Positions 14,030-61,003 of a stretch of DNA of 64,000 nucleotides are shown here, in pieces. Both the position numbers and the translations under genes were made by a program. The stretch is from positions 3,953,501-4,017,500 of the forward strand of contig NC_092016.1 in assembly GCF_042242105.1 (NCBI RefSeq). Direction: 5' to 3'. Numbering within the stretch: position 1 is the stretch's first letter; every line of letters starts with the position of its first letter. Origin of the DNA: Pempheris klunzingeri. Taxonomy: Eukaryota > Chordata > Actinopteri > Acropomatiformes > Pempheridae. Under the pieces are notes generated by a model. The model saw nothing but the letters and a program-made list of their open reading frames with translations, did no database searches and was not told the origin of the DNA.

Positions 14030-17000
14030 TCAGTAGATTCGGCCTCGGCTCCTGTTGCCTCTGGTTCCAAAACCTCGTCCTCGGCCGCCCCTGAAGCCAC
14101 CACGTTGCTCTGCAGTCAACAAAACAAACACTTAGGACAGACAAACATATTCTAACCTGAACAGTACTGAGTATGAGACAGATGCCAGTTTTGGATAACA
14201 AACACACATAACTGACAGGAACTTGTGACAACGACATATTAAAGACACAACTAGAGGTGTCTACTCGTTGTGTCTTTGAATTTGTTCATTTAAAAATCAT
14301 GTGTAATGAACAGGACGGATCACAGTTCAGGAATAAACTCAGTTTTGGACAAACTGTAACAGGAGCATCGTTTCTGAATGACCACAAAAATATCTTTAGC
14401 ATTTCTGCACTGATTTATTTTAACTTACTGGCCGTAAAAAAAATAAAAAACAACGACTAATATTTGTATTTCCCGTCATCGGTTTTTATAACATAACTTC
14501 ACACGAAGATTATAACTACAAACGTTTGGTTGTCCAACCATAACTTCAACAGAATATATATATTATTATATTATAATATGTTTGCCTGGTGTTTCATATG
14601 ATGAATGGCCAGTCTGAAGGCCAGGTGACTGTTACTGATAGTTAAACTATGACTGACAGACAGGACCAGGAGGCTCGTGGCTCTGAAGCTCAGCTGATGG
14701 CAGCATATTTAGCTATTTATTGTATATAACAACCGTATGGATCATTCAGATTAACAATGGAGAATTGTCCATTCAATTACTGCAAACCCAGGCGGACTGG
14801 AGCTGCCGTCTAATTGTGTTTGCTAAATAAACTTAAATTAAATATAAAATGAATGAAATAACCCAGTGTTTAGTAAAATCCATAAAAGGTGAACATGCTG
14901 CACAACAGTGTGAAAAAAAAAAGTGTTCCTCACCGTAATTAAAATTGCCAATGGATGCGCTGTACTTGCCGCTGGGGGGGTTGTATATTTGCCGTGCGTC
15001 CCTTCGGGGCTGAGGAGAGACCTGTTTTTTTGTGGTGGCACCGGAGCCCATCTCCTCACCTGACGGGCGCTTGGGTCTACAAACACAAACCAGAAGTAGA
15101 TGATGAGGACCTGGACCCTGCTGCCGTGTGTTTGGATCCCCACTAAGGTCGAATCGAAAGGTGCTTCTATCATTTTTAACGTTAAACATCGAACATTGAA
15201 GAGGGAGCAGACTTACGCTACTGCTTCTGTCTTCTGGACAGGTTTCCAGGACAGAGTGACTGTGCTCTTAAATGATGGAGGGTTGTGGAAGAGATCCTGG
15301 ATGAAAATAAAGATTGAGAGACAAAAAGAAAACTATTGGTCATCGTGTACATCTTCTATTTCCCCTCCTAATTAACCAAGTGATCAGAAAAATAGAAACA
15401 ATATAATGCCATCTAATACAATCATCATGTCTGAATCCTCACTAGTTGTTGATAGTGTCAGAAAGGTGCCTTGGTTGGTTGGATATTATTATTATCATCA
15501 TTATTAAGAGATGTTTCTGTTTTTCTATATACATAAATGATGCTTTAACATATTGCAGCTCAGCTCAGCACCATGAAGCATCGTCTGAAAACCTACCACA
15601 GAAACAACTCCATACACAAACAACCTGAGCAGCAGTAGTAGATGAAAACTGGACATTTGAAGTTTATCGTGTTGCATCATGCAGGCGTCATTACTGTAGT
15701 CACTGTGTATGTGACCAACATCTTACCTTGATGAGGACATTGATGTTGTTTGTGATCTTGAGGGCCACCACTTTGATCTTGTTCTGATTACACACAAGAG
15801 ACAAGTTAGTCTTTGACATATTTTCACCGCAGAATTATCTCACTTTGCGTGTTTGTTGACTTTATGCATCAAGTTTCTATTCAAGCAAAGCAATCCAACT
15901 TCAGATGACAGTCGCTGTTACCTCTTCTGTCTTCAGAGCGTCGCCTGTCTTGCCTTGCAGTGCTACTCGCAGCTGTCTGATGTAAACCTGCAGGCCTCTG
16001 GCAAAATACTGTAACCTGTTTAAACAGAAATCACATCCAATTCAATGTAAAAAGTTTGGGGATGAAATGCCCAAGATGAGCCTGACAAGCTCAAAATCAC
16101 ACTTTGGTTTAAGCTCACTCATGTTATTACTTCCTTTGTGTGTAACTCCCTCACCTGATCTTGAAGTCTTTGAGACGCTCAGCATCCACTTTGTCGATGA
16201 GGAAGTCTGGCAGCTTCTTGCCCAGCTGGTGGAAGCCGAACAGGAGACACTCCACATAACTGAACTGCAGTTTGGGCTCCTCGTTTGCTGAGTTCTCACC
16301 GTTCTCCACCTCCTCTGGTGGCAGAGGCATGAACTCCTAATGAAACAGAAAAATCAGGGGAAAAAAAAATCAGGACCAAAACCTATTTTAGTGTCAAATA
16401 GCTTGGAGCATTAGAGGGAATATATATTAAAACTAATATATGGGATTTTTTTTAAATACTAGTATTTTTTACCAGTACTTATTGTGGAGCATGCACTGGG
16501 ATACCGCTAAAATAAGCCAATTAATTCTAGAAATTGTTACTAATAGGGCCACTTACAAAGTGTATTTAAAAATAGACAATGTGACTCCGCTTCCTCTCAC
16601 TGTATAAAAATAAAGCCTAAATATTCTGGACACAGGAGCTGCCATCTTGTACTGGTGGAGACGCAATCAGTGCTGCGCAGACTCTGGCTCCAAATAGACC
16701 CCCCCAACCCAGAGACCCACGACATATCACTATATTTCAGTGGCATCAAATAATAAACTGACCAGAATAAGAAGTACCCAAAATGACAGACTATCTTTAA
16801 CATTTATATTTTTTAAAAATAGATTTTACTTTGTTCTGTGTCCCATCCACTAACACTGACACAGTGGGCTTTATGAACCCGTCATGCCATCTGTTTTTAT
16901 ACACAGTCTACGGGGACACTGTTTTAAATTCCCCACGTTGATTACTACAACCTTTTTGCATCTTACAGATAATCCTGTAAGCACGTACTTCAATAACTTC

Positions 17001-20000
17001 TTCCCTACTTTGAGTTGCAAAAAAAGAAAATTGTTGGTTCAAATACACAAACCAGATGGAACAATAATATAAGCCATGCTCATGACTGTCCCAAGCAACA
17101 GTTATTTAAGGAAACTAAGCTAGAAAATTAAACTTCAGTTGACCAGGAGAGCCCACAGTAGAAAGCTGACCATGTGTGCAACAGTATGAATGTAAATAAA
17201 AGAAAATACTAAAAAAAAAAAAGAGCAGTAAAATCTCAGAATGAATCAGGGAGAAAACTGCCTGTGTGTATTTTGATGTTTGAGTACATTTCCATTTGTA
17301 TTCCTCTGTGTCCAACAACAACAACAACAACAGGACCGTCCGTTCTCACCAGCAGCTTGGTAAACAGCATGTTGAGGTTGGCCTCCAGCTTCTCCATGTC
17401 TCCACAGAACGGACTCATCTCAGCCAGCAGCTTCAGCACCTACACACACACACAAACACACAGCGTAATGTGCATTGCTAATGAGAAACAGTGTTGCGTG
17501 GTGCAGACTAATGACCCATTAACAACATGCAGTTGGCTGACACCTCTGACAGGTGGCTGCCACGCTGACTTTGTTTACTACTACAACCGCTCACCAAATG
17601 TCAGACATTAGGAGTATCGACCTCACACCTGTGGCCATATTCGTCGGGCCTCTCAGGAGTAGAAGTGCTGATTCGGGTTGAATAAATGCAGGTCGGGTAA
17701 CAAGTCTTTGTGTCTAATGGCCACACTGGCTTGTAAACAGCAACGGTGAATAGGCGCTGGTCTTTTTGAACGAGGCTGTACTGTTGTGAGGTCGGGTGGT
17801 GGGGGGCAGCATCAGCTGACAGCGTCATGGAGAAGAGGCAAGTCAGAGAGGTCACAAATTCAAAACAGTTCGTCTGCTAAGAGTCGAGGACAAAACACGG
17901 CGTCACAGTTGCTGAATTTACCCACAACTGAACCAGAGTTTCAAAGTAAATGGGTTTAAGCTGCAGATTGTGTTTTCACGGAATTTCAAGCTCGTTGATT
18001 AGATGTTTCTTGACATAGTTCTCCTCGAGAGTCTACCTTGAAACAGCTTGTATCTTTATAAAAGGAGGAGACATATTCTGACTATTTTCTGTACTGGTGA
18101 TTTTACTATGAGACTTTCATACAAATCCAGTTTTACTTCTGGTGCCAAAAAAAACCCTCATATTTCAAGTTTCATAGTAGAATTACGCAGAACACACAAC
18201 AGTTTTAACCCATCTTTTTACAGCTGAATCCAACACAAAATATACAAAAGTAAGTGCCTTAAGGTTTTTGCTAAAACTGATGATCATTGGTCCAAATATC
18301 ACTGACACGGGCATCAAGGGGATGTAGAAGTCTACTTTTAGATATCATTTCAATCATACCACAGCAATAACCACAACCATGTCCGATAGTCCATTAGTCC
18401 AAGACTGCAACACCAGGGTGGTGGTGGTGTGACAAATTAATGTAAGAAGAAAACGCTAATTTCATCATTAGACATTAAAAAGACAAACTCACCTCCAACT
18501 GAATGTCCAGCTCAGCCACAGGACTTGTCAGAGCGCTGAGGTTGGTCAGGACGTGTTCACAGAAGTAGGTTACAAAACGTGTGGAATGGACGTTTTTCTA
18601 TAAAGACAGGAGATAAACATGATTACTCATCGTAACTGTGTTCCTGTAAGAGGACTGGATATGTGTAAGAACATAATACTGAGCAACTAATTTGATAATC
18701 CATTAATAATCATTTATGTCCTTCATACAAACATGAATATGCTGATTCCAACATCTCAAATCTGAGGATTTGCAGCTTTTCTGTGTCTTATGTAATGGTA
18801 AAATGTTTTTTTACAATAAGCAAAGCAAGGACACAACTTTGAATGTTTGTGATGAGTGAATTCTAGTGAAAGTTTCCTCTATTTTTGAGTCAATTAACAG
18901 ATTAATCAAAAAATAAGATCGCTTGTCAACTCTGACATTATGTCATGTGTTTTAATGTATGGTGCATGCAAGACGTTCTCATTTTGAGTTCAAGTTCAAG
19001 CATTGTTTTCTGTCATGCTGAAAGTTTTTAATGTCAGCTGCCATTGTTTCTGGACACATTCAGCAGTGATTTATAAGGCTCTTCTTAAGTACTTACAAAC
19101 GCTGATATTATGCCAAAAAATGTTGAATTCTCATTAAAAAAAATCTTTTAAAGGCACTAAAACCTTTTAATTGAACTTGGCAAAACACTTTTCTAATCTA
19201 TGTTAAGTCATTATTTGGTCAGTGAACTTGGTTGATGTGAAGTGCGCTGGTTGTTCTCACAGAGAAGAGGGGCAGGGCCTGGCGTGTGCACTGCAGCAGG
19301 CGGTCAACAGTATCGGGATCAGCTGGGTTGAGGGCCTGCTCCAGGAAAGCCTGTTCCACCACCAGCTCCACCAGCTGCTGTCGTCCGTTCACCGTCTGCA
19401 GCACCCGAAGGCCCGATACTACACGCATCAACAGCACAAACTCCTCTCCCGTCACATCCTCCAGGACCTGAGGAGAACAAAAGAAAAACCCTCAAACGTG
19501 TGTTCCTTTCTTTTTTCAGCAGTCCAACATCTATCAAACGCTCCATTGTCATTTGAACTCCCAGTCAGACGATTTTCAGCAAAGGTAACATGTAAAGCAA
19601 AATCTCATCTCCACTTTCTAAATGGTAATTAAACCCGTGGCCATATTATACTGGGGGAGAGTTGTTGATGGACTCGTAGATTCACAAATCAGTTCACCAA
19701 TTTACAAAACAAATGCAAGAACACAATATGGAGTGATGTAATTTGATGTAAATTACCTTTGTTACATTCAGGCGTAAAGAAAAAGTTCACTCATCTTTGA
19801 TCAAAGACCACTGATCAGTTCTACACTATATGCTAACCTTCTTTGTCTCTGCAAAGACGTAGTCCTCCACCTCCTTTGTCATGACGTCCTCTGGCAGGGT
19901 CTTCAGTTTGGCTGACAGAAACTTGATGGCTCTTTCCCGCACGATGTCTTCTCCCTGCAGGATCTGAGAGAAGAGGCCTCCGAGAGTACCTGAGCAACAA

Positions 20001-22471
20001 AACACAGCAGGAAAAAGGATTGTGTTGATGAAAGTCATTAAAAACTCAGTGGGATTACAATCTGAACTAACTAACTCAACTATCATGAAATACAAGCTAA
20101 ATTGTAATCTCATGATTACAAAAAAGGAAAATCCAATCACCCTATTGAGCAGGTAGAGAAATCTGCATGACAGAAGAGATTACAAATTATGAGGGATTAT
20201 TTCCAAAAAAGAAATAAACTTATTCAGATCAACTGGCAGCGATGGATGAATGATGCTAACAGGAGCAATTCACACAGGTATCTGTATAAAACATTCACAT
20301 GGCCAATGACACAGCCCTGAGTGAAATGATATAGTTCACAACAAGCCCGCTCTACAAGTAGAGAGAAATCTCACTCTGGGATAAGTATCCCAAGGAGGAA
20401 GAAAAGAATCCTTAAAAAGAATTAAGAAGCAAACAGGAGCAACACTCACCCTTTGCATCGATCTTGAAGATAGAAATAAGTGCTGCATTCACTTGGTTGA
20501 ACTCTGCTGTATCATCTGAAAGCACAAACAATTACAGATTCTTCAGTGGTCATTCTATGAGATTTTTACTGAACAGTAGCAGATCACAGCAATCAAGACA
20601 TCAACGTGCTTGGTCAGACTGACAAGCATATCCAGGGATTAACACTGTCTGACAAACAGAGTAGAATATTCACAATAGATCACAGCTGGGACTGAAGTAA
20701 ACAACACAGCCACACTTAAAGCCTGTAAAACCACCTCTGTCAGTGAAGTTGCTTGTTAAAAAAAACTAATTTAAAACCCTAACAGGACATAGAGGTCCCG
20801 CAAGTATTCAGCTTGAGGAATCTAATACCTGTCTGAAGGAGCTGGGTGAGAATATCTGCAACTCTGAGGATGTTCTCGCCAGTTGCAAAACGCGGGAGCT
20901 CCTTGATGGCCTGCCTTCGAATCTGGGCAAAGACAAGTACACATACACAGAGAGGTGGTTAGAAAAGACTACTGTGAATCCAGACAGTCAAGGGAGGAAA
21001 CTCCACATCAAACTAGGAACATATGAAGCAGCAAATTTTAACGCTAATAACCTTAAAGGTCAAGGCCGACTCTGCGGGTGCCACAGAGTCTACTGGGGTG
21101 TCCATGCACACCCGTGTCCTTAAGTACTCACCGACACATCCTCATCTTCACAGAGGTCAAGCTGAGCGTTAATGGCTGCGTCGGCCAGTTCTGGAAAACT
21201 GCTGAAGAACTTGGGGATAAACTGCGCTGCCAGGCGCTTCTCCTTCGGGCCGCCCTTCACGCCATCCAAGATTACTTGGTAGGCATCTTTGTGCTGCAGA
21301 ATAAAAGAGAGGGCATCAATAACCATGTGCAGCATATACAACAGCAGCATCACATTATAATTCATGCTGAATCTCACGCTATGATACGGCACAGGTTCCA
21401 CATTGAAAGTGACTTCAAAGGCTCACTGTTTTGTAGCACTGACTAGAACAGCGGTGGGACACTGAGTGAACCTGGGTGTTGTAGCTGATATTGTTATGTA
21501 GAAACTCCTGTACTGTGTATGTTTGTTTACGACAGGGAGAGGGGATGCTGTGAAACTATTCTGTTTGAGGGCAGAATGGCCATTGATGCCTCTATGCATG
21601 CAAAGGGCACGTCACTTTAAAAAAATAAAATTATTTTAGTTATAGGAGTACTGATCAGCTCATGAAAATAACTAAAACTGATGAGAATAAAATCTGCATT
21701 ACACACTGGGGGGTTAAAGGGTATTTACCAGGGGCTACGGACTATAAGGATGTGGTGAAGTTTCACTGCAGGCAAGTTTCTCTCTAATCTCTGCACTTAT
21801 TTTGCCCACTCTTTGTTATTTGGTCAGCTGTGACTCCCCTAAAGTTATGAAAATGTAATACTACGTGGCTGATTGCTTCTCTATCAGGCAGCCTCGGAAC
21901 AAATGTGTGTATTTTGATCATTTACTAGGAGATATTTCTCCTGTTCACTACCTTGTAAACGTTATCAATGTGCTGTTGAAACTGAATCTCAAACTTGAGG
22001 TGAAGTTAACTAGTTTTCCTTTTGTGCTGCGATCTTACAAAGTTCACATCAACTTCTAGATAACACGAGCTCGGATGAGAGGTGCTGCGGTGAATGTGAA
22101 TCAGCCACCCGGGATAAATAGAGCTGCCCTGGGTTGAACTTGAATGAAAATGGGTCCCCAAGTAACTAAATTAGCGCCTGGTCGACTTGTTGAATTGTGA
22201 ATGTCGTGTTAGTGCCGCCTATCGTGAGGTCCACGGCGAGGCCATCACCATTGGCCCGGTCAGTGCGTTAGCTAGCTAACGATACAGTTAGCCTAGCACG
22301 CACTCAGCTGAAGTTAACAGCAGTGGAAGCAAGATGAGATGCAGAGGCGAGTCAAAAGAAATATTGGTTCAATAATGTTAAAAAATGAACTATATTTACC
22401 TGGCTAAGGTTGTCCTTGGCATCAGCAAGGACCCCGTAGCTCCGATAGAGATCCTCAATAGTGACCGCCAT
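14030..22471 (-). CDS. api5: Apoptosis inhibitor 5 (API5), complete
   Basis: Nuclear helical-repeat scaffold protein with anti-apoptotic roles (family knowledge). Fourteen coding exons join in phase to 1584 nt (527 aa; human about 524): 22400-22471, 21132-21293, 20829-20922, 20450-20515, 19838-19989, 19261-19467, 18493-18597, 17350-17439, 16155-16336, 15922-16015, 15727-15783, 15217-15296, 14934-15076, 14030-14109. The start MAVTIEDLYRSYGVLADA aligns with the human N-terminus. HEAT/ARM-like helices fill the first part (e.g. HKDAYQVILDGVKGG). The leucine-rich segment VECLLFGFHQLGKKLPDFL follows, then a basic stretch (PRRDARQIYNPPSGKYS) and a C-terminal RGG tail (QRGGFRGGRGRGFGTRGN). Lys252, the first residue of exon 7, corresponds to human Lys251, reported as an acetylation site. 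No break is seen. The 5' side carries an NRF1-type site; the 3' UTR end was not fixed. Confidence 0.97.
18690..18930 (-). repeat. Likely dispersed repeat in an api5 intron
   Basis: CATCTCAAATCTGAGGATTT and TTGAGTCAATTAACAGATTA recall a common teleost interspersed repeat related in style to the one in the tdg introns. The match is remembered, not computed. Confidence 0.35.
22267..22280. repeat. Perfect 14-bp palindrome near the api5 5' end
   Basis: GTTAGCTAGCTAAC, in intron 1 of api5, 120 bp inside the first coding exon boundary. It is one of several GCTAGC/GTTAGC words near 5' ends in this window (see findings). Confidence 0.8.
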
Positions 22472-23511: not shown

Positions 23512-26500
23512 TCACAGGAACCGGATTCCTGCTCCAAACTGAACCCCATCACATATCCTGCAAGGACGGAGAGAATCAATAGCAAAGCAAAGCAAGATAT
23601 TGCACATAAAATTTAGCCTAGTATGCCTTAAATTACCTTAAAATAAGTCTAATGGGGGAACTTCAAAGTCATCTTGCCTAAAACAACCCCCAACCAGCCC
23701 TACCTGTCTCCACTCTGGACTCCCATGGGAATGCAGTAATTCAGCTCCAGCCGGGCAATGTTCCCCAAACGCAGCACAATGCCAAGTCCATATGACCAAC
23801 GGATGCATTCTGCCAGTTTTTTTAGATGTGCCTGTGGCCCCTCACCTGAGAAATAGCAATCATATTACCTCAGCCAAACAGATAACAAGTTAAGGTATTA
23901 AATCTAATTTTACTCATTACACGGCTGCTCATTGGGTTTCCCACTACTCACCATAGTTAAGGTTACAAAGGTTTCCGGCATTGAGGAAGAAGTGTGTTCT
24001 GAAGAGGTCACCAAAGCCCCCCCTTCCTGGCCTGAAGGGTAGAGGGGTGTAGAGGTGGAGGCCTCCAGCCCAGTAGCCCTCTCCACCCAGGTAGTCGCCT
24101 GCCAAGCCAGTAATACCAGCACACAACCTTTCAATTAACCATCGAACTTCAATCTATTTCCACGCAACTCAGCCAAGTTAATGTCTCACCTTCACTCTGT
24201 GGGCCCATGCTGTACATACTGAATCCCCTGATGCTCGTGGGGCCTCCGAGATAGAACCTACGAGGTTGGCAGGAGGACAGAAATCCACTTAGAAATCATG
24301 AAAAAAGACACTTCTTATTACCCCAGCGCTTGACTGAGAATTCTCACGTTTTTACATTTTCTTCAGTATCAAAGTAATCCAGTAATAGTTGTCCTAGACA
24401 TCTACAGGTACATTGCAAACAAGAACTGCCGATAGCTAATTCGGCATACTTTTCATGATGTCTCTTTGCAAAAATGTAAATACACACAATGCACTGAATT
24501 TCTGTACCTGTCTGCTATGCTTGTTGGCTTGTCACCAATGGGAAGGAGTAAACCACCCCACAGTGAAGCAGAAAGGACCTGGAGGAGAAAGTCAGAGGGT
24601 TTAGTCTAACAAACTAACCAAAGATCATCATCAAGTTGGTGTTTTGGTAACATAAAAATTAATGGCTAAAGAAGGAAAACACCAAGGTTTTTCAGTAATT
24701 AGTCTGTTGGTCCTTAAGTTAACTTTCTGCTAACAGACCATTCTTATAAAAACCTGGGCATATTACTTGAATTCTTCACCTCGCACTTAAATTGTTGGAC
24801 AAAAACAATGTAAAACCACAAATAAACCAATACTTCAATATCCTTGTACTTGTAAAGTACATGTAGACGTTAAACTGCATGAAGTGCCTTTAGATGGGAT
24901 GATCTGGTAAATGGCTGAAATGTCAAATGTAGAATCTCACAGAGTCCCAGAAGAGCGTTTTGTTGAGCTGGATCTCAAAGTCCTCCTTCAGGAAACTGGC
25001 GTCTCCCCCAGTGTAGCCAGCAAGTTCCTACACAACCACAACACAAAACATCAACCTGGTGTACAGGTTGAGCCATATTCTTTTCATAAAGCATTTGGAA
25101 AAAGCTCTGGTTTAGTGCTCAACAACAAACCTGATGGATCTTCAACAGGCCGCCTTTCCTGGGAAGGATGGAGGAGTTTCTGGTGTCGATGACCATAGCA
25201 TGCTGTAAAACAAAGTGGCATCTTTCACATGATACTGCTAAACACAGGTGTAGTTTATTATTATTATTATTCACTTTTCACCAACTATTCAACATAATTC
25301 ACACCAGCATTTACCGTCCCCAACTGTATGATGAGTTACTGAAATGTGTTCTGATTGTTTGAAGCCTTTACTTAAGTGCTGAATAACAGCTAGGTAGTTT
25401 ATTCTCCAACAGAGGACTTCACGAACCTTCACAGCTATTTCGAAGTAGCATCTTCAACATTAAACAGGGAATAAATACCGAAAGTGAAGACTTGAGGGAA
25501 TGGCCGCTCTCCTCCCGAACAGCAAACGAGGCGGTGCGAGCCAGACAGCCGAGCTCTCTCCAAACTCCCTCCCACTTCAGGGTTTGGTTGGTCTTCCACA
25601 CTGGGAACTGTGGGGGGTAAAAAGGTGATTAAAGCACCAGTTTATTACTTTTATTTACGCAGATCTCGTGCAGTAAACGAGCCTGCTTCATATTTTGTTG
25701 GTAACACAGCAACTGTTGTCTCCTTACAACATGAGGAAGTGATTTGTTTCTGCAAAAGGCTTCTGTTGGTAGAGCAGATTCCTTATTATTATATAAGAAA
25801 ATGTTAGTGAAAGACAACTGGCCCGAACTCTTTGTGTTTAAGGAATAAAACTCCAGCCCAGAACTGACATTATGATCCAGAACAGAATATTTCGAGCGTC
25901 CGTTCTGATTATTTTCAGTTCATTTTGTCAACAATCTTAATCGCACAAAATGAGAAAATATATACATATTGATATACGAGTGGGATAATGTAGAGCGAGC
26001 TGGTCATTATTGCAAACAGCAACAGTCTGCTATTCAGGAATAACAGACCGTAGAAAGCCGTAATTGACCAACTGATCAGAATCGAGTATTCAACAAAGCC
26101 GTGTAATAAATATATATAGTATATAAAAGTATTTACACTTATTTCAGCAGAGACGCCTCGATCCGTCTCCCTCAGTGAACTCCATGGAAACTGACCGGTT
26201 ACTTTGTACAAGTTGAGTGAGACACTGAAAGTGAAAACAGAAAAGAAGAAGTGTCAACACCCTGCTTGGACTTAGAATATATCCACATGTAGCTACAGCA
26301 GAGAAGGAGCCAAATCTAGAGCTCAAGGGGAGTCACCCTATCTGCATAATGTGCAACCTCAACCACCATGTAACAGGACTGCAGGACTTATAGCAAAAGA
26401 AAAAGTCTTTCTGTAAATACTGTAGACATCATGTATTAAATCATTCGACCTTTGTGAATCTTACTTGCGTTCAAAGTTTCCTGGTTGAGGTTTGAAGAAG

Positions 26501-35584: not shown

Positions 35585-38500
35585 ATGGAGGAAAACCAGT
35601 ATACATCATTGACGGTTCCTACGGATTATTTTCAGCAGTGGTGAGTTGCTGCTGGAGGTGGCGGGTCTTGGGAAACTTCCCATGTTATCCCCTTGACATC
35701 TTCATTTTCATGCATGAGATGGACAAAAAAAAAACAATCAGCGTTTGACACACGACATTATGCATACCTGTATACTTGTAGCATGTGATAGTGTAATTAT
35801 TAAGCATAAGAATATGTCAAAATGTTTAAAAAATTCAGATATAGTCCAAGAAATTAAGTAAAATCATGTTATTAATTAGAAATTAGCCTGTTAGATAATC
35901 TCACAGGGTAATGATATTGCATTATGTGTGCTGGTGTGACAAATCCCAAAGAGATATTTAAGATTTTGACATGTTACTACATTACCCAGCAGTTATTACA
36001 GCATCACCTGCTACAGGCTTCATAAATACACCTTCGCTGGCTCTCGCTCAGCCTATTTGCCAACTGTGGAATGGATTAGGCTGTACAAAGGAAAAAAAAA
36101 ACAAAAAAAAGAGAGCTTGTAGATGACTTCACATCAATCACAGTCACAGTCTTCTTGCAAGTCCTATCAGTTGTTTGTATATCTTCATTCCATTCTGGTC
36201 GGCATCATCACCGCAGCACACAACAGAGTTGGTGTTGAAAGATTTGTGGGTGCTATGAGTGAGTGGTCTTGGTTATGTGTCCAAAATGAATCAAGCAGCC
36301 CTAATAAAGGGAGGAAAACTTAGATACTCGTGCAATGAATGAAATGCAGAGAATACAAACAGGTGTATGTCAGCGCATGTATGTTTTTGTAAGTATCGTG
36401 TCTTGTAAGTTTGCTTCACCCGCTTTTTCCACGCACCTCATTGAATGACATTATTTGTGTTCTCTTGCTCTGTCCAAGACCTGTTTCATTCTGCTCACCT
36501 TCCTTTTCCTCCTCTCTTTAACCTTATTCTTCCTCCTCCCGTCTCCTTCCGTGCACCCTCTTTTCCAGGTACCAGTCCAGCCAGCAACACCCGGAGGCCC
36601 AGTATGTGATGCCCTATCACAACACAGGCCATTACTCAGAAGGGCCCAGAGATGAGCTGGTCATGGCCGAGCTGTCCGTTCACCGCGAGCCGCCTCTTTA
36701 CCAGGAGTCTTTTCATCACAACAACCCCCCAGTCCTGAATCTCTACCAGGAACAGGCCCACCAGCAGAACTTCAGGGAGCAGCAGCAGCATCCTGCTCAC
36801 CTGCACCACCCTCAGCATCAACATTCAGTACAGCAGCAGCAGGAGCCGAATGTTCAGCACCAATATCAGACTGTTGGTCCACCTCAAGGTATGCACGGAG
36901 ACTTTTTTCAGCCCCATCTACTGTCAGGCTACAACTTGAAAATACTTTCATTATCGTGTCATTATTTTCATTTTCCTGATTAATCGATCAGTTGTCTGGT
37001 CCACAGAATGTCAGAAAATGGTGAAAAATGTTGGTTACCATTTCCCAAAGCTCGAGGTGACGCCCTCAAATGTCCTTTTTTTGCCACAACCCCAAAGATT
37101 TACAGTTTTCTGTCATAGAGGAGTCAAAAAACGAGAAAATATTCACATTTGAGAAGCTGAAATAAGAGAATTTTTATTAAAAAGATGACTCAAAACTACT
37201 CAAAAAAAGTGATATATTAATCAGCTAATTGTTGCAGCTCTTATCTACCGTATTTAAAAGTCTGGTAGTTTTTGTAGCAGGGAATCTGTCAGACTGCTAC
37301 ATTTTTCATATACTGCATGATGATTTTCTGGAGTAATTTAGGGACTTAATCTTGTCGTTTAAAGGACTAAACAACCAAGAAGCAGAAAAAGTCCTAATAA
37401 AATGGGACCCTAGTCTGCGTCATTGTCCGCTGTATTTGAACTAATGATCACATCTTTGATTCACCGCTCGCCAACTCACTAGAGACACCTGGTCTTTGTT
37501 CTAGCTGCGACACCAGTGAAGAAGAAGAGAGGCCGGCCTCCTAAGCAGCAGGCGGAGGAGGGCAAGGCACAGGAGGAGGAGGATGAGGTGGAGGCCGCCA
37601 AAAAAGCCAAGAGGGCTCTTAACCGCTTCAACGGCATGACAGTGGCTGAGGTTATGGCCAGAACTCTGCCAGACGTTATTACCTACAATCTTGACATCCT
37701 GATAGTGAGTCATTTACTGAGGACCTGTCAAGATTTTATATATTCATGTTTAATGGAATAAGCAGTGGACTGTTTTGTCTTTTTTTTTTTCTTTTTCTAT
37801 TTTTTGCCGTTTTACAAAAAAGGTGTCAGTCACAAGAAACTGTCATTTTTAGGTCTGTTGCCGTGGTAACACCTTCATGTTTCTCCTCAGATTGGAATTA
37901 ACCCAGGACTATTGTCAGCCTTCAAAGGACACCATTACCCAAACCCAGGAAACCATTTCTGTATGTTGAAATTCAATTTCATTACTGACTACAGGGAGTA
38001 CACGCCAGCCTTCACTGTTAACTTCCTCTGACCCTCCGTCGGTCCACCATCACGAACACTTGTTATGCAGCTCAGATTTGTTCAAACTCGTTATTTCAAT
38101 TGAATTACAAAGAGAAGCCATAAAATGATGCAAATACTCTTTTACGACTTTTGTTTTGATGTATTGGTGCAGCCGTAAAAATGGTGTCTTGGGTTTGAAT
38201 ATTTAATTCTGTCTATAAATTATGTATCTTCAGTGGTGCACTGCAGCAGGCAGACAATGTGATGCACGATATGTGCGACACTCTTACTCTCACTCGTTGA
38301 TTTATCATCAACGGAGGTGTTTTTCAGACAGGTATTTAAAAGGAGAGGTTGTTTAATCAGGGTGCAAAATAATTTCATGGACGTTCACATTGAGCTCCTG
38401 AAGGATATTTGCCATCACACTCTTCCTAAAACACAGCAGGCACACACGTGTTCTTTTCTCCCAAGAATCTTTGACATTCAGATTAGTCTTTGATTTTCAT

Positions 38501-40383
38501 TTATGTTTTGTGTCTATTGTTATGCTGATATGCAGCCAAATATTTTAGATTCTTGTGCCGTCATTCGCTTAACTTTAGCCTCAGCAGGTCCACTATCAGC
38601 ACATCACAATGAGAACATTTACTGCTACCAGTGACTTCATCGTGTTCATCATCGGCTCACTAATTATGTGTGCTGATCCTGTAGATCCAGTGCAGCTACA
38701 ATAACTGCAAAATCACTCAACTAGCTGATAAACTGAGTCTAGTGTTTGGAAAAGTATTTTGTTTGTTCTGATTGGCACTTGGCTAATTAAAATGTTCAAC
38801 TCTTCTTTTCCACCCAGGGAAATGTCTGTTTCTCTCTGGTCTGACTGAAATCCAGCTCAACTACATGCATGACGAGAGCCTGCCAGAGAAATACAGCATT
38901 GGCTTCACCAACATGGTCGAGAGGACCACGCCTGGCAGCAAGGACCTCTCCAGGTGAACAGGAACAACAGTTTCACTTTAAAAATGTTGTTTACAATTAC
39001 AAGTCAGTCATTTTAGTTGATACTTTTATACAGAATGATTCAGAGTTGATGCAACAATACACTGAGAATGAATTATAAGATCACCAACAGTGAAGAACCT
39101 CTGGGTAAATATCACCCAATACAATCCAGTGTCTGTTTTTAAACATTAAAATTTTCTGGGTTTCTGTTTCTGTTCCAGTAAAGAGATTCGTGAAGGAGGC
39201 CGGCAGTTACTTGACAAGCTGCAGAAATACAAGCCCTTAATAGCAGCTTTTAATGGAAAAGGTAAACTATGATGTATATTAATGCCATTGAGGTTTTTAA
39301 AAAAAAAGGGAGCTGGGGAAGGAGAGTAATATTATAAAAAAAAAGAATCTGAATTTCCAGGATTAAAGTAGTAAATTTACAAGACAAAAAACTCAGATAT
39401 TCTCTGAAATTAAAGTTGTAAATTTGCAAGAGAAAAATCTCAGGAATTCTCCAAGACTGAAGTCCTGTGTCGAGGAACAACTTCGCTTCAGTTTGCAAAG
39501 TTGGATCAACCTCATCACGCCACAGTCATCTCCGCTTTCCGCGTATTCTGTCTGCAGTGGAAGACCTCATCAAATTATAACATGCAATCGAATTTAACAA
39601 TAAGGAAATACTAGTGATTTTATTCAAGAAACACTATTTTTCTTAGTTTATTTCTCATAAAATTACAACTTTAATCTCAGAATATTACTCCACCCTGCCC
39701 CGTCTCTGTAATGTTCTGTGTTTTTGCCTATAATGGCCCTAATCCATGTTATTGTGTACTGACATTTGTTTATTTTGGCAGGTATTTATGAAATCTTCTG
39801 CAAGGAAATCTTTGGTGTGAAGGCAAAGAATCTCGAGTTTGGTCTGCAGCCCTACAAAATCCCAGAAACTGAAACAGTATGTTGAAACAGCACCTGGATT
39901 ACTCTTAAAATATACTCAACAGCACAAACAACAATCTTCACAGCATGTTTCCTTACACCTAGGTGTGCTACCTGATGCCATCATCGAGCCCTCGCTGTGC
40001 CCAGTTTCCTCGTGCGCAGGATAAGGTACACTTCTACATCAAGCTAAAGGAGCTGCGAGACCAGATGAAAGGTGTGGCACCGAGCCTGGAGGTGAAGGAG
40101 ACAGACTACTCATTTGATCTGCAGCTCGCAAAAGGTAAATAGTGTAAACAGATACATGTAGTGGTTTTATTCGATTTTCTGAAACGTGAGCAGGGTCCAG
40201 ATTTTAGTTTTACGTGGATACTTATGTCTTAGATGAAGATCTGACTCCTCGATGTTGTGTTTGTTTTTTTCTGCAGAGGATGCCAAGAGGATGGCAATCA
40301 AAGAAGAGCAGGTGGATCCAGAGTATGAAAGCTGTAGTGGGCTGCATGGTGACGTGAGGCAAAGCAGCAACTCCTCCAACTAA
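35585..40383 (+). CDS. tdg.1: Thymine DNA glycosylase, tandem copy 1
   Basis: Excises T or oxidised 5-methylcytosine (fC, caC) opposite G in base excision repair and active demethylation. Nine coding exons (35585-35640, 36569-36888, 37505-37704, 37891-37960, 38818-38953, 39179-39261, 39782-39876, 39963-40134, 40277-40383) give 412 aa. The N-terminus is His/Gln-rich, with an AT-hook-like KKKRGRPPK after it. The catalytic motif GINPGL has Asn196 (human Asn140), followed by the usual [12 protein letters not shown]. The second motif reads [11 protein letters not shown], so human Ala274 is replaced by Pro while the intercalating Arg is kept. A SUMO-type IKEE is present near the C-terminus. The protein stops early in exon 9 and lacks the terminal QWMTQSF-type segment of copy 2. 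Symbol by analogy with the zebrafish tandem pair; which copy corresponds to which is not proven. Confidence 0.95.
36925..37240 (+). repeat. Dispersed repeat in tdg copy 1 intron 2
   Basis: The segment runs from ATTTTCCTGATTAATCGATC to TTGTTGCAGCTCTT. It shares long stretches with the reverse complement of 43180-43445, for example GTCAGAAAATGGTGAAAAAT, CCATTTCCCAAAGCTCGAGG and AGAAAATATTCACATTTGAG. It is an interspersed repeat widespread in teleosts (recognised from memory); the class is uncertain. Confidence 0.6.
39308..39706. mobile_element. MITE-like repeat in tdg copy 1 intron 6
   Basis: The left end GAGCTGGGGAAGGAGAGTAA and the reverse complement of the right end (GAGACGGGGCAGGGTGGAGT, AATATT) form imperfect terminal inverted repeats. 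The interior holds two diverged copies of a roughly 48-bp unit containing ATTAAAGTTGTAAATTTGCA. No transposase coding is present. Confidence 0.5.
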
Positions 40384-40631
40384 AGGAGACGGAGGAGAGG
40401 TGAAAAAACAGGCCTGTCTGCTGTAGCACACAGGTAGTGTAGCTACTATGTAGTTCTATGTAAATTTAGCTGGATTTAGATTAAATGGGACTTAAATAAT
40501 AAATAAATAATTTCAGGTGCATATAATCCAAACCACTGTGACTGCTTCTCTACTATAACTATAAGAAAAGCATTGGTTGACTTCTAACTGGCTTCTGCAA
40601 GCAGCACTAATCATTGTTATTTATCTTGCAG

Positions 40632-40738
40632 AAATGGGCATTGTAGGCCAGTCAGCGGACAACATGACAAGGAACCGCCGCAGCTGGAAATGTCCGCACA
40701 ACAGATACCAGATATCAGCTGTAGCATGATGCATCAGT
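40632..40738 (+). pseudogene. Decayed terminal coding exon of tdg copy 1
   Basis: After a good acceptor (ATTTATCTTGCAG) lies a sequence ending GCACAACAGATACCAGATAT, CAGC, which matches the last exon of copy 2 (GCAGACCAGATCCCAGACAT, CAGC) at 21 of 24 bases. It follows the stop codon in exon 9. A donor at 40399 (GGAGAG|GTGAAA) would join it in the ancestral phase, as 3' UTR. It appears to be a former coding exon now untranslated. Confidence 0.55.
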
Positions 40739-41187
40739 GAGGGGGAGAGACCCTCTGATGACACCACAAGAGAAGAGGAGTCCCACTGTTTCCTGAAGCA
40801 TCACAATGTGACGCACAAGGGGTGAAGTCCCCACAACGGTTACATTTTCTAACTCTCAAACAGACTGTGCATGTTTTGGTGTCATTTTTTATCTCTATTT
40901 ATTGCATTTTGTATGGTATGTGTGTCCAGTGAATTATTTTTGTATTTTGAAAGAATGACATTTTATGATTTTGAGCTGTATAAATAGGTAATTGTCCTCT
41001 GGCATTTCTAATCCGTAATTGCAGAGTTATTAAATCTCTTCTAAAGCCGCCACGTTTACTGTCTCATTGTTTCAGTCGTTCATGTAAAACTGTACCAGGA
41101 AGCATGTTTTACTTCTCAGCAGCCGTGTGTTCAAGTTTATATTAAGCGCAGACCTGCAGAGAAAACGCCAACATTTATAAAGCTAGA

Positions 41188-42837: not shown

Positions 42838-45800
42838 ATGGAGGAAAAGCTGAATGGATCATTCCCTGTTGTCTCCCCGGAGTATCTTCAACAGTGGTGA
42901 GTCTTCCTCCTCCCCACAATGAGGCCATGCAGGAGTCAGCTTATATCAGCAAACCTCTGAATGGCAACGTGATGAAAATGAAATGAAAGCATGTGTGCCC
43001 AGCCGCCCTTTCTGTCTTTTTGTTTTACCATTGTTTTCATAATATGCCATTTTTGTTTGTGCACTGTGAATGATGCTTTAGGGGGCCATGTGTGTTGTTT
43101 TATTACAGCTGGATGGCATTTTACTTTGATTTAATTCAGGTAAAAGAAAAGGATTTTCCTTTCTTCGATTTGTCCTCAACTATGAAATTAATTGTCAGAT
43201 AATTTTTTACAATCGATTAATCTATTTGAGTAATTTTTTCAGAAAAAAAACCCTAAAAATTCTCTGATTCCAGCTTCTCAGATGTGAATATCTTCTGGTT
43301 TTTTTACTCCTCAATGGCAGTAAAGTGAATTTCTTTGCGTTGTGGACAAAACAAGATATTCTTATTCCATCTTAGGCTTTGGGAAACACTGATTGACCTT
43401 TTTCTGACATTTTTATTGTTGATTAACCAATAAAACATTCAACAGATTAACTAACAGTCTGAATAATAAGTAGTTGCTTATTACATATTATATATATAAC
43501 TGATATGCACTCAGGCGTCAGTTTATTAGATCAACCTTTCTGAGGGTAACTCAGACTTCTGTAACAGAAATTATTTGAGGTTATAATGATCAGGTTTTGT
43601 TTATTTAAACTGTCATTGTTTCAACTTTATGGTCAGTCTGAAGTTTGTGAGACTGTTTAATTGTATTGTGTTTCACTAAGAGGTATGCAGCCACTCACTG
43701 ACCTAAAGGTCCACAAACACCTCTCTTAATATATTAAACCCAATATTGGATTAATCTCAAACAACTCAGATAATTAGGTTAAAGTGAAGGAATTTGTTAT
43801 TTAGGTTACATAACTCACTGGTCTAACTCAGCTGTGACCCTGCAGCACACCTCGCTGCCATTTCCTTTGTTGTATTTATTATTTCCCTCTTTTCTTTTTA
43901 TTAATTATTCTTCCACCACAGGGTTCAGTCTGCACAGCAGTTTCAAGCTCTCCAGGCCCAATATTCAGGGTTCAACCCCAACTCTCAGTTTCACCACCCG
44001 GAGGGGCATATGGGAGAGACGGGCATGGCACACATGGGTAATCCAGAAGCCATGATGGAGCAGCAGGAACCTGCCAACCTGACAAAACGTACTACGATCC
44101 CTTTTGAATGAAATATCCTCACTGTATATAGAGCAGCTGGTAACAGATTTCTTGTTGACTCAGTGTGTCAACAGTAGGTCTACACATTTCTAAAAAAAAA
44201 TATGTTACTGCCTGGCACTTTCTAGTAAGCTGTTGGTGACAGTTTTATCAAATAAATTTTTTTCTAGAATGATTTTGAGTACTATTTGCTTGGAAATGTG
44301 GCACAGAAATATATAGATGGAGTTGTTAAAGACCGTTCTCCCTTTGAATAAAATGTCTCTGAACTTTTCCATTAGCCCCTGCCAAAAAGAGAGGCAGACC
44401 AGCTCAACCTAAGGAACCTAAGCAACCTAAACAACCCAAGCAACCCAAACCACCCAAACCACCAAAAGTTCCCAGGGCACCAAAGCCACCTAAGGACCCA
44501 AATGCACCTAAAGCCAAACCTGGTCCTAAACCCAAGAAGGGTGCTGAGGCTCAGGCCGACGGAAAGCAAGAGAAGATTGACGAGAGCTTCAAGAAGGTCA
44601 AGAGGAAAGTTGACCGCTTCAAGGGAATGTCAGAGGAGGAAGTTATGAAAAGAACTCTACCAGACCTGCTGGAATACAACCTGGACTATGTCATTGTAAG
44701 ATTCCCAGTTCAGCTCTTTAACAGTGGAGCCAAGCACTGCGCCATCAGGAATTAATTTGAGTTAATAAGCTTCAAAAACATGCACTGTGTTTTTTCCAGA
44801 TTGGTATCAATCCCGGACTCATGGCAGCTTATATTGGACGGTGGTTTCCTGGTCCAGGAAATCATTTTTGTAAGTTCTGTGACAATGATTTTGACTTGTG
44901 TTGTAATGTAGTAAAAATAGTTCCTGTGCTCGTCTGAAAAAATGATCCTGTATCTTTGTAAGACCCAAAGTGAGATTATTCAGGTTGAAATCAGAAGCAC
45001 ACATGGCCTTTAATAGATTATTTTACGTCACTTTCCCCATTTTTATAAATGAAGATTAAGGAGGATGCTGTGACATCAGACAAATATAATAATTCTTGTT
45101 AAAGAGATGAACCTTTTCATTCCAGGGAAGTGCCTGTTTCTGTCTGGATTTACTGAGGAGCAGCTCAACCACATGCATGACAGCACGCTGCCTGTCAAGT
45201 ACAAAATGGGTTTCACCAACATGGTGGCCAGGGCGACGCCAGGGAGCAAAGACCTCTCTAGGTAGGGGGGCATGTGAGATGCATCGTGTTTGATGTTACT
45301 GGAGCCAAAAAAATCAGAAATGTTGGGCCAAGAGGTGTCCTGAGTTGTGCTGAAGTTGGATGAGCAAACAGAACTCTGTGTTAGGCTGATATTCCTGTTA
45401 GCTTTGAGATTGAAATTCTGTTGCAACAGTGTATGTACAACCATTTTTTCTTATGTTTTCATCCCAACAGTAAAGAGTTGCGTGAAGGAGGCAAAATTCT
45501 CGTAGAAAAGTTGAAGAAATTCAAGCCTCTTATTGCTGTTTTCAATGGAAAATGTAAGAACTCTTCTACTACAGAGCAACAATTAGAGTAAGATGATTTG
45601 TTCTAGTGATTAAAGTGATTTTCTATTTCTCTCTCTGCAGGTATCTATGAAATGTTCTGCAGAGAGTTGTTTGGTAAAAAACCACAGAGTCTTCAATTTG
45701 GTTTGCAGCCACACAAGATTCCCGACTGTGACGTGGTGAGCTTCATTATGGATTCTTCAGATATTAATGAAAGTTACCCTCATTTTCTAAACTGGCCTCT

Positions 45801-47194
45801 CAAAATGGACGGACTAATGGTTTGAGTTTTACCTGCATAGTAAAGTTAATATATCAGTTCAGTACTTGGTAACAGATTCAGTTAATCACAGGACATTTAA
45901 CATACTTGCTCTACTCAAGAGTTGAAAAACCATATCCTCATAACTTAATGTACGAACAGCCGCCAGTTTAGAAAATGAGACTGTAAACCACACCGCAGCA
46001 GTCCATGTTTCATTACCTCTGAAAACTCGACCTGACAGTCGTTTCCACTGCGCAGGCTCTGTACCTGATGCCTTCATCCAGCGCTCGTTGTGCCCAGTTC
46101 CCTCGTGCTCAGGACAAAGTCCACTTCTACATCAAACTGAGGGAGCTCCGAGATGAGCTCAAGGGCATCCAGAAACAGACTGAAATCGAGGAGGTTAAAT
46201 ACTCATTTGACCTGCAGCTAGCCAAGGGTAAGAGTGGAGGGGTTTAGTGTAGATTCTAAATTATCCAAACTTTAAAACAGAAAACAACAACACAATAATG
46301 CTATAAGCCTCGTTAAAGATAATTAGTTCTGGTGTAGTAAAGAATGAACGTTTTCTTTTAAACGCTAATTGGCGCTGAAAGTAGCAGCATCATCATCATG
46401 GACTTGATACTCTGGATCCAGGTCCGATCATGTTTGGCATTCGTTCTTCCCTTTTTCACAGAGGATGCCAAGAGGACGGCGATAAAGGAGGAGCAGTACG
46501 ACCCTGGTTATGAAGACGCCTACGGTGGAGCATATACAGAGAGAGGACCTGAAGGGGACCAGGCCCAAAGCCAGACCAACGGTCACTGTACATTCTCCAC
46601 TGGAGAAAACACAGGTACCTCACATACTGTTGACTCGGAGTGTCTTCCACTCTTCAGATGTACTTATGTACAGGGTGCAGCATGGTGTCGTATAACCAGA
46701 CATGTATTTTAACCATCTTTTTTTTTTTAAATTATCGTTTGGACAATTTATGGCTTTTTATTCGACAGCGCTAACAGACGGAGAAAGGAAACAGAGTGAG
46801 GGAACGACACGCAGCAAACTGTCCGGCTAGCATGGAGTCAGCCAGGGACTCACTGCTCGGGACATTTGTGCCTGAACTTTAGCAATGTTTACAGGAAAGT
46901 TAGTGAGTTCTTGGTCAGCTGTGATTGGAACAGTCAGCATTGTTATGTGAACTGAAGTAACCGTGTTACAGCTGGCTTTCTGCACTCAGGTGATTTCTTG
47001 AACATCATGTGTATGAGAAACCTGATTCCTGTAGTCAGAGACGCCTGATTTTTATTTTTTATGTTTTCGCCCCCGCAAGATTACTTCAGGAGAAGTAACT
47101 TCTAAAGCCATGTATACGTGCAACCAGGTTTCTGATCAGCTTTTTGCAAGTCCGCAAGTGTACGACAAGTTGTCCTTATCACTGCACCGGCCTC

Positions 47195-47232
<38 letters not shown>

Positions 47233-47642
47233 GTATTAGCAGATTACATCACCACCATTACTTCATACGGTCGGGCATACATCGGCTGCTGCTTCATGTG
47301 GGTTTAAAGTTACAAGGCTGTCAAATATCCTGCATTGCCTGATTTTCTTGAGGTAAACGGGTGTCTTGTGTGCATGTAAGCGCACTCATTGAAAAAGAGT
47401 CATAGCCTACAGTTGGATTATTACACTGTTGGGCGCTACTGTGCATCTGACAGATCGTATCAGAATGAAGATAATAGATATCAGCGTCTCAGCCTGTGTG
47501 TTGTCTGTCTGCAGAAGGAGCACAGGCGGCGACCACATCACAAATAGCAGAGGGCCAGCTCCCGGACGGACAGTGGATGACCCAGTCCTTTGCAGACCAG
47601 ATCCCAGACATCAGCGGAGGACCAAAGGATGGCAGCGTATGA
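42838..47642 (+). CDS. tdg.2: Thymine DNA glycosylase, tandem copy 2
   Basis: Ten coding exons (42838-42896, 43922-44088, 44376-44695, 44800-44869, 45126-45261, 45471-45553, 45641-45735, 46056-46227, 46462-46614, 47515-47642) give 460 aa. Exons 4-8 have the same lengths as in copy 1 (70, 136, 83, 95, 172). The N-terminus has a [13 protein letters not shown]-hook-like core, then a Lys-Pro-rich tract built of PKQ/PKP units. Motif 1 is GINPGL with Asn186 as the catalytic residue. The following loop reads [16 protein letters not shown] where human has MAAYKGHHYPGPGNHF. Motif 2 [17 protein letters not shown] is intact, as are the SUMO site IKEE and the C-terminal [16 protein letters not shown]. 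It therefore keeps the full vertebrate TDG architecture but with an altered substrate-pocket loop. Confidence 0.95.
43180..43445 (-). repeat. Dispersed repeat in tdg copy 2 intron 1
   Basis: Reverse-complement copy of the repeat at 36925-37240; shared blocks include GTTTCCCAAAGCCTAAGATG and ATTCACATCTGAGAAGCTGG. It lies in a different intron from the copy-1 insertion and in opposite orientation, so the two insertions are independent. Confidence 0.6.
45779..45979. repeat. 18-bp perfect inverted repeat in tdg copy 2 intron 7
   Basis: CTCATTTTCTAAACTGGC at 45779-45796 is repeated as its exact reverse complement at 45962-45979, 165 bp apart. This may be a small fold-back element or MITE. Confidence 0.75.
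47197..47231. repeat. (CA)n microsatellite in tdg copy 2 intron 9
   Basis: About 17 CA units in the last intron of tdg copy 2. Confidence 0.9.
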
Positions 47643-60100: not shown

Positions 60101-60681
60101 AGTCGACTGAGGCTTCTCACGTCTACTAAAGAGGCCAATGTGAGTTCAAGCAGTGAAATCTGATGTGGTCACAATAAATCTACCGTAGAAGAGACAGAGG
60201 TAACACCTGAAGATGTGAATCCAAAGTCTGTCTTTTGCAATAATAAAGTAAAAACAAACAAAAAACAAAAACTAGAATGTTTGTAACAAACTCTCCTCAT
60301 GGTGTTGATGGCTTCGTTGACATTAGAGATTTATCCAAGAACAAGTAGTGCCTTAAATCTATGCCGAATTATTTAATGAAATATAGTGATTTTGATGGCA
60401 GCTGAGTATTGTTTCAGTTAAGATACTATATTTGTGAATTACCAACGTAGCTTTAAAATGCCAGATTTTTGAATGAAGTTTGGTTAGAACTCACCAAGGG
60501 GGATTCCAACTGTGAGAATAGTAGCCAGCAAAGCACCTGCAGACGCCCCATAGATTTTAGAGGCGTCGTGTATGAAACGAGGGAACCGTTCAAGAATACA
60601 GCTGGAGGCACCGACATAATAAATCCCCATAAAGCCGCATCCTGCAAAGGAGATGCACCAGTCTTCCTGCAAGTCAAACAT
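54947..60681 (-). CDS. Patatin-like phospholipase, PNPLA3/5 type, tandem copy B
   Basis: Nine coding exons (60495-60681, 59142-59374, 58782-58847, 57597-57806, 56767-56827, 56481-56663, 56230-56371, 55553-55660, 54947-55271) give 504 aa. The first seven exons have exactly the lengths of copy A. The start MFDLQEDW aligns with human PNPLA3 MYDAERGW. The oxyanion motif GCGFMG is intact, the nucleophile is Ser47 in GASAG, and the dyad Asp166 is in DGA rather than DGG. Residue 148 is Val. After the patatin domain, [20 protein letters not shown] and [20 protein letters not shown] match the human PNPLA3 C-terminal region closely. A Pro/Thr-rich tail ([17 protein letters not shown]) follows. An upstream in-frame ATG at 60762 would add 27 residues but lacks family support. 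Orthology to PNPLA3 versus PNPLA5 is undecided. Confidence 0.92.
57115..57148. repeat. (GT)n microsatellite in copy B intron 4
   Basis: About 16 GT units in the intron between exons 4 and 5 of pnpla3-like copy B. Confidence 0.9.
58540..58655. repeat. Dispersed teleost-type repeat in copy B intron 3
   Basis: AAGGCAGGTTTATTTTTATA, then CAATTCAAAGTGCTTCACAG and an A-rich tail; related to the stretch at 26600-26760. The family name is not known to me. Confidence 0.45.
59440..59712 (+). repeat. LINE-like 3' tail ending in (TTATTC)n
   Basis: In intron 1 of pnpla3-like copy B, the sequence ends CCGGGATAAATAAAGGCGGT followed by five TTATTC-type units. A GGGATAAATAAAG end with a short tandem tail is characteristic of fish non-LTR retroelement 3' ends. 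No reverse transcriptase coding is present. Confidence 0.45.
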
Positions 60682-61003
60682 GTTGTGGTGGAACTGCACC
60701 AGCAGGAGGGCAGACACCACGGGACACCACGGAGACCAACTTGTTTGAATGCTAAAATCCAAATGATGGGGATTGTTGGTGGGCAGCTGCCACCTTCACA
60801 TTACCTGCAAACAGCATCCAAAGGTGACAAGATAACCAATTGTAAAGTTGTGTCATTGAGATCTCTTTTCCTATTGGCTGGGAAATGTCACATGGTAGCA
60901 GAAAGAGAGCCGAGTTGCAGTCTGCTCTGGTGTCAAAGACAGTGTGGTGTCACTCCACCTCTCTTGCACTTTAGTTAACCGAAACACACTTTGGGGAGTT
61001 AAA
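60682..61003. promoter_or_regulatory. Divergent promoter interval, pnpla3-like copy B / oxygenase
   Basis: Only 322 bp separate the start codons of two divergent genes, so this interval must contain both leaders or, if leaders are spliced, part of a shared promoter. No obvious CpG island or TATA pair was identified. Confidence 0.5.

What the first reader, a model, noticed from the sequence alone, without database searches (positions are those of the whole stretch)
44800..44869. TDG copy 2 has a rewritten substrate-pocket loop beside the catalytic Asn
The exon reads [22 protein letters not shown] as [10 protein letters not shown] then [12 protein letters not shown]; human TDG and copy 1 have KGHHYPGPGNHF / [12 protein letters not shown]. 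Thus positions matching human K148, H150, H151 and Y152 are I, R, W and F, while the catalytic Asn and the rest of the fold are intact. In human TDG, H151 and Y152 line the base pocket and affect activity and recognition of oxidised cytosines (from memory). A duplicate with an intact fold but four changes in six residues suggests altered substrate choice rather than simple decay.
Basis: partly seen in the sequence, partly recalled or inferred. Interest (0 to 1): 0.75.

Follow-up and report, generated by a model that had tools for sequence, protein, structure and literature searches.

The report
Fish TDG duplicate with altered pocket
One of two side-by-side fish copies of the DNA-repair and demethylation enzyme TDG looks intact, except that a histidine touching the damaged base has become a tryptophan, so it may choose its DNA bases differently.

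Summary
Exon 4 of the second tdg copy is exactly 44800-44869, with good splice sites, and reads [22 protein letters not shown]; human TDG and copy 1 have KGHHY where it has IGRWF. Copy 2 is a complete 10-exon gene (460 residues), and a genome search found no third TDG or spare exon 4. It does not look like a pseudogene: N140, N157, N191, N230, S271-273 and R275 are kept, and the copies differ at dN 0.22 against dS 1.67.

The interpretation needs sharpening. Among 109 prokaryotic MUG/TDG relatives with the catalytic Asn, I148, R150 and F152 all occur. Trp at 151 occurs in none (H 82, Y 19, N 7, P 1). Of 36 positions conserved between human and bacterial relatives, 151 is the only one where copy 2 alone departs. 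So the rewritten loop comes down to one radical pocket change plus three tolerated ones. His151 has published roles in T and caC handling, so altered substrate handling is the best reading, but it is inferred. Four changes in five residues is not unusual over the whole domain (P = 0.14). Copy 1 has its own changes in this exon. No other fish tdg sequence could be reached, so fixation and age are unknown.

The parts
44800..44869 (+). tdg copy 2 exon 4: catalytic N140 motif and the IGRWF loop (human 148-152)
42838..42896 (+). tdg copy 2 exon 1, start codon
43922..44088 (+). tdg copy 2 exon 2
44376..44695 (+). tdg copy 2 exon 3: Lys/Pro-rich N-terminal region ending in a human-like KQEKI...KVKRKVDRF patch
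45126..45261 (+). tdg copy 2 exon 5, including N191 (and E194A, T196A)
45471..45553 (+). tdg copy 2 exon 6, including N230
45641..45735 (+). tdg copy 2 exon 7
46056..46227 (+). tdg copy 2 exon 8: [13 protein letters not shown] insertion loop with R275
46462..46614 (+). tdg copy 2 exon 9: IKEE, at the position of human K330 (SUMO site, name recalled)
47515..47642 (+). tdg copy 2 exon 10: C-terminal tail and stop
35585..40383 (+). tdg copy 1, 9 exons (35585-35640, 36569-36888, 37505-37704, 37891-37960, 38818-38953, 39179-39261, 39782-39876, 39963-40134, 40277-40383), 412 residues
37891..37960 (+). tdg copy 1 exon 4: KGHHY kept, but L144, S145, F147 and N154 derived
15219..21317 (-). api5 exons (synteny anchor on the copy 1 side)
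23932..24102 (-). Omp85-domain match, possibly samm50 (synteny anchor on the copy 1 side; E 2.3e-5, one stop inside the matched stretch)

Best explanation
Copy 2 is an intact, selectively maintained TDG glycosylase lying at the tdgb (zebrafish tdg.2) position of the tandem pair. It keeps the catalytic apparatus but carries one radical change in the base pocket, H151W, flanked by three changes to residues other family members use (K148I, H150R, Y152F). Most likely it still flips and cuts bases by the standard N140 water mechanism, and F152 still stacks on the base. The large, non-basic W151 replaces the histidine that contacts the N4 edge of caC and has been calculated to shuttle a proton for thymine. 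The predicted effect is a shifted preference: bases that leave easily (U, fC) kept, and T and/or caC changed. Shown: gene structure, residue changes, conservation and co-variation. Inferred: catalytic activity, the direction of the shift, and any division of labour with copy 1.
For: Complete open gene with GT-AG splicing. Human identity over 228 core residues is 162 for copy 2 and 169 for copy 1, with 29 and 22 lineage-specific changes, so copy 2 is not evolving much faster. dN 0.22, dS 1.67 between copies. The other active-site residues checked (I139, N140, G142, A145, N157, N191, T197, N230, S271-273, R275) are kept in copy 2. Of 36 positions conserved between human and bacterial relatives, 151 is the only one where copy 2 alone departs. 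W at 151 is absent from 109 N140-bearing relatives (and from all 126 rows), and D191 occurs only with Y151 (17 of 17 D191 rows), so 151 and 191 look coupled. H to W needs at least two amino-acid replacements at that codon. Literature passages: His151 side chain contacts N4 of 5caC (PMC3488261); calculated proton shuttle for T but not needed for fC (PMC8510025); H151A/Q let TDG act at normal A:T sites (PMC5363859); N191 essential for caC (PMC9800633).
Against: No enzyme data, no expression data for this species and no other fish sequence. Clustering is not significant over the whole domain (P = 0.14; for 9-residue windows of between-copy differences P = 0.31). Three of the four changes occur in relatives. 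Copy 2 also has E194A and T196A beside N191, though Ala is the commonest residue at both sites in 84 relatives (34 and 48). Position 151 tolerates H, Y, N and P in prokaryotes, and E. coli MUG, with P there, still acts on G:U and G:5caC (PMC3488261), so W need not alter specificity. A published survey says tdg functional sites are highly conserved in all the sequences it analysed (PMC6976628).
Confidence: 0.48

Rival explanations
1. Tolerated drift: the loop moved within what the TDG/MUG fold accepts and substrate choice is essentially unchanged.
For: I148, R150 and F152 occur in relatives, and 151 can be Y, N or P; the whole-domain cluster test is not significant; copy 1 also drifted in this exon, and A145S in human TDG is reported to have no effect on specificity (PMC3488261).
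Against: W151 in 0 of 109; 151 is the only one of 36 deeply conserved positions where copy 2 alone departs; at least two replacement steps at one codon; the other 19 of the 23 residues 138-160 match human in copy 2.
Confidence: 0.27
2. Weakened catalysis: copy 2 is mainly a DNA-binding or regulatory TDG (reader, co-activator or chromatin role) with low glycosylase output.
For: W at the pocket wall could hinder base entry (inference). Copy 2 keeps the human-like N-terminal basic patch (18 of 29 aligned columns identical) and the lysine at 330.
Against: N140, N191, N230, S271-273 and R275 are all kept; a pure binder would be expected to lose some of them.
Confidence: 0.15
3. Artefact: assembly error, alternative exon, or decaying pseudogene.
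For: Only one assembly could be examined.
Against: Nine in-frame base differences from copy 1 spread over four codons, no Ns in the window, complete frame and splice sites, no alternative exon 4 reported by the genome search, low dN/dS.
Confidence: 0.03

Closest known systems
Vertebrate TDG (human TDG, PDB 1wyw, 5ff8, 2rba)
   Same: Same domain without gaps over 228 residues, 162 identical (71%); same N140, N157, N191, N230, S271-273 and R275.
   Different: K148I, H150R, H151W, Y152F in the base-pocket loop.
Teleost tandem tdga/tdgb (zebrafish tdg.1/tdg.2)
   Same: Two head-to-tail copies; order api5 - Omp85 match - copy 1 - copy 2 - PI3K_C2 match agrees with the published order pik3c2a-tdgb-tdga-samm50-api5 (PMC6976628).
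   Different: That paper reports functional sites highly conserved; the 12 of 21 passages shown to me mention no pocket change, and its alignment (a supplement) was not available.
Bacterial MUG (E. coli mug and 108 other N140-bearing relatives)
   Same: I148 (10) and F152 (84) occur there, R150 rarely (2).
   Different: None of 109 has W151; E. coli MUG has K at the N191 position.

Membership tests
TDG (UDG superfamily family 2) | GINPG motif with catalytic Asn (N140) | tested here: met
TDG (UDG superfamily family 2) | Catalytic-domain homology over full length | tested here: met
   PDB 1wyw E 4.9e-114. NCBIfam TIGR00584 at 389.5 bits is just under its 402.6 cut-off, as is copy 1 at 401.8. Pfam UDG 42.5 bits, cut-off 24.3.
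TDG (UDG superfamily family 2) | Other active-site and wedge residues N157, N191, N230, S271-273, R275 | tested here: met
TDG (UDG superfamily family 2) | Base-pocket H151 and Y152 of vertebrate TDG (not defining for the superfamily: Y, N and P also occur at 151) | tested here: not met
   W151 and F152
TDG (UDG superfamily family 2) | Excision of U, T, fC and caC opposite G | not testable with these tools
   needs enzyme assays
Teleost tdgb (tdg.2) orthologue | Chromosomal position between tdga and pik3c2a | tested here: met
   against the order in PMC6976628. The api5 anchor is strong; the Omp85 match (E 2.3e-5) and the PI3K_C2 match (E 8.5e-4, the weakest of 13 in the genome, about 57 kb beyond copy 2) are weak and their exact genes were not identified.
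Teleost tdgb (tdg.2) orthologue | Groups with other fish tdgb in a tree | not testable with these tools
   no fish sequences other than this genome could be reached

The most novel reading that the evidence does not exclude
Teleosts split TDG's two jobs between a tandem pair: copy 2 (tdgb) fixed a tryptophan at the pocket position that in human TDG contacts caC and guards against attack on normal T, giving a glycosylase with its own base spectrum, for example fC/U-directed or acting on a modified base human TDG ignores, while copy 1 keeps the standard histidine.
Probability: 0.22. Interest if true: 0.75.

Novelty: new variant of a known kind. Interest (0 to 1): 0.45.

Why it matters
TDG joins two processes that are hard to separate in mammals, G/T repair and removal of fC/caC in demethylation. 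A natural paralogue altered at the one pocket residue with proposed roles in T chemistry, caC contact and protection of normal DNA would be a ready-made separation-of-function enzyme, and could show how fish divide these jobs, for instance in the germ line, where zebrafish tdg.2 is reported highly expressed in late spermatogenic cells (PMC12452583, passages). If the change has no effect, it shows that His151 is less critical than computation suggests.

Tried and rejected
Pseudogene or decay: rejected. Alternative or mutually exclusive exon 4: none reported by the genome search. 'All four loop changes are exceptional': rejected by the family survey. 'The cluster itself is highly significant': not supported over the domain (P = 0.14). 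For between-copy differences, 9-residue windows give P = 0.31, and the densest 11-residue window (9 differences, P = 0.04) starts at 302, not in the loop (8); counting only positions derived in one copy, 144-154 is densest (8, P = 0.04). 'Copy 1 is the unaltered one': rejected; it also has A274P, C233G and a shorter C terminus. Scans for relatives with the two fish domains found none in genome contigs (97 pattern matches, none confirmed) or viral contigs (72, none confirmed); a second genome-contig scan with bacterial MUGs worked. A tblastn search found relatives in 98 plasmid records and 7 phage records; I fetched 3 of these. Literature: no paper holds the loop peptides. Two papers hold tdg.1 and tdg.2 together (a review and a stickleback mapping paper) and two hold at least two of tdga, tdgb and the full enzyme name (the phylogeny paper, and a splicing review not opened). 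Of 178 papers only the 20 listed were seen, three of them opened.

Papers: 15 were opened for term searches only, and passages were seen in 14; PMC4627079 held none of my terms. No paper was read whole.

Full report
The locus. The window lies at about 4 Mb on contig C5 of a 646 Mb genome. Two complete tdg genes stand head to tail on the + strand: copy 1 with 9 exons (35585-40383, 412 residues) and copy 2 with 10 exons (42838-47642, 460 residues), all internal junctions GT-AG and in phase. A six-frame search of the whole genome with the copy 2 protein returned 21 places at E up to 10 (34 candidates scored); 17 are tdg exons inside this window and the other 4, on other contigs, have E above 2. 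To the left lie api5 and an Omp85-domain match, possibly samm50 (E 2.3e-5, with one stop inside the stretch; the better of the two genome matches is on another contig). To the right, about 57 kb past copy 2, is a PI3K_C2 match, the weakest of 13 in the genome (E 8.5e-4). A patatin-like exon lies between copy 2 and that match. [quoted passage not shown] So copy 1 sits at the tdga position and copy 2 at the tdgb position. No tree could be made to confirm this.

The observation. Exon 4 of copy 2 is exactly the reported interval and reads as reported. Against human TDG, taken from the PDB alignments, copy 2 is changed at 148, 150, 151 and 152 (K to I, H to R, H to W, Y to F) and identical at the other 19 of the 23 residues 138-160. 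Copy 1 keeps KGHHY but is changed at 144, 145, 147 and 154. A145S, one of copy 1's changes, is the majority state in prokaryotic relatives (S 90 of 109), and A145S in human TDG is reported not to affect substrate specificity (PMC3488261).

Is it more than chance? With human as outgroup, 29 of 228 core residues are changed only in copy 2 and 22 only in copy 1. Four in a window of five would arise somewhere in the domain with P = 0.14 under uniform placement; copy 2 has another such window at 262-266. Within exon 4 alone, four changes falling within five of 23 residues has P = 0.0087, but that region was chosen after the fact. Counting positions derived in one copy only, 144-154 is the densest 11-residue stretch (8, P = 0.04); counting all between-copy differences it is not. 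So clustering alone is weak evidence.

What changed matters more. I collected MUG/TDG relatives: 80 loci from genome contigs (the best 80 of 578 confirmed), E. coli mug and three plasmid copies of 98 plasmid records, then 50 loci from family searches that hit 11 of 198, 14 of 200 and 24 of 151 genomes. Of those 50, 47 passed a profile; three lie in genomes already sampled and two had no letters at this site, which leaves 42. Of the resulting 126, 109 have the catalytic Asn. At position 151 those 109 have H 82, Y 19, N 7, P 1 and W 0; the 17 rows without that Asn all have Y. At 148 the 109 have T 52, V 20, I 10, S 7, L 6, A 6 and eight others including one K; at 150 H 81, Y 13, F 9, R 2, W 2, L 1, A 1; at 152 F 84, Y 25. 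The 152 column is biased, since one search pattern required F or Y there, and the rows are not independent. Of 36 positions where human TDG agrees with at least 75% of the first 84 relatives, copy 2 departs at three (151, 186, 268); copy 1 departs at 186 and 268 as well (at 186 to a different residue), so 151 is the only one where copy 2 alone departs. The four changes therefore reduce to one radical and three tolerated ones.

Coupling. D191 occurs in 17 of the 109 and always with Y151; none of the 82 H151 rows has it. This may reflect one clade, but it links 151 with 191, the residue reported essential for caC removal (PMC9800633). Copy 2 combines W151 with the usual N191, as do all 7 N151 rows and 60 of 82 H151 rows. 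Beside N191, copy 2 also has E194A and T196A; Ala is the commonest residue at both sites in the first 84 relatives.

Selection. Between the copies dN is 0.22 and dS 1.67 over the core, so the pair is old and constrained, although a pairwise value cannot assign constraint to one copy. Synonymous sites are near saturation, so multiple changes in one codon are not by themselves remarkable; still, H to W needs at least two amino-acid replacements. Copy 2 keeps a human-like basic N-terminal patch (18 of 29 aligned columns), which copy 1 resembles less by eye, the lysine at 330 (its role as SUMO site is recalled), and a C-terminal tail that resembles human TDG's as I recall it (recalled, not tested).

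Mechanism. From passages read: the cleaved base stacks face to edge with Tyr152, and the His151 side chain contacts N4 of 5caC whereas O4 of uracil contacts the main chain of Tyr152 (PMC3488261); calculations give His151 a proton-shuttle role for thymine but not for fC (PMC8510025); H151A/Q and A145G let human TDG act at normal A:T sites (PMC5363859, citing a reference I did not open); E. coli MUG, with P at this position, acts on G:U and G:5caC (PMC3488261). From these I infer that copy 2 remains a glycosylase with changed handling of T and/or caC. The direction is uncertain: loss of the histidine could relax discrimination, as A and Q do, while the bulk of Trp could restrict entry. Drift without effect is the main rival.

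Biology. Zebrafish tdg.2 is reported highly expressed in late spermatogenic cells (PMC12452583). In trout, tdga peaks in late spermatogenesis, while tdgb shows no significant change there and is relatively abundant at the start of development (PMC6976628). These disagree on which copy is testis-linked, but both point to divergence in the germ line. A 2018 review says neither expression patterns nor loss- or gain-of-function data had been published for the zebrafish pair (PMC5869911).

Limits. No other fish sequence, RNA or structure could be used. Fixation, age and enzymatic effect are open.

Noticed in passing
37891-37960 and 39963-40134 (copy 1): Copy 1 is itself changed at functional sites: A145S, M144L, Y147F and G154N in exon 4, and A274P in the DNA-inserting loop (SSSPRCAQ).
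   Followed up: partly
40277-40741: Copy 1 has a shorter C terminus (stop at 40383). A remnant of the last exon downstream (40632 on...SAQQIPDIS...) is read in frame, among the nine GT sites tried, only from the one after 40322 (A|GTATGA), so copy 1 may have two C-terminal forms.
   Followed up: partly
L012, L014-L017 (Azospirillum and relatives): Bacterial relatives with a TDG-like TNLVAR segment and N151 (GHNY), closer to animal TDG around 191-197 than E. coli MUG.
   Followed up: no
relatives: Position 191 Asp appears only with Tyr at 151 (17 of 17), a possible specificity switch in prokaryotic MUG-like enzymes.
   Followed up: partly
60487-60795 (-) and 60899-61201 (+): A patatin-like phospholipase exon and a DIOX_N dioxygenase exon downstream of the tdg pair.
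   Followed up: no
G000:C7:4489218-4489685: The only UDG-superfamily (PF03167) match that the genome search reported (it did not report the split tdg exons); not among the tdg matches; gene not identified.
   Followed up: no
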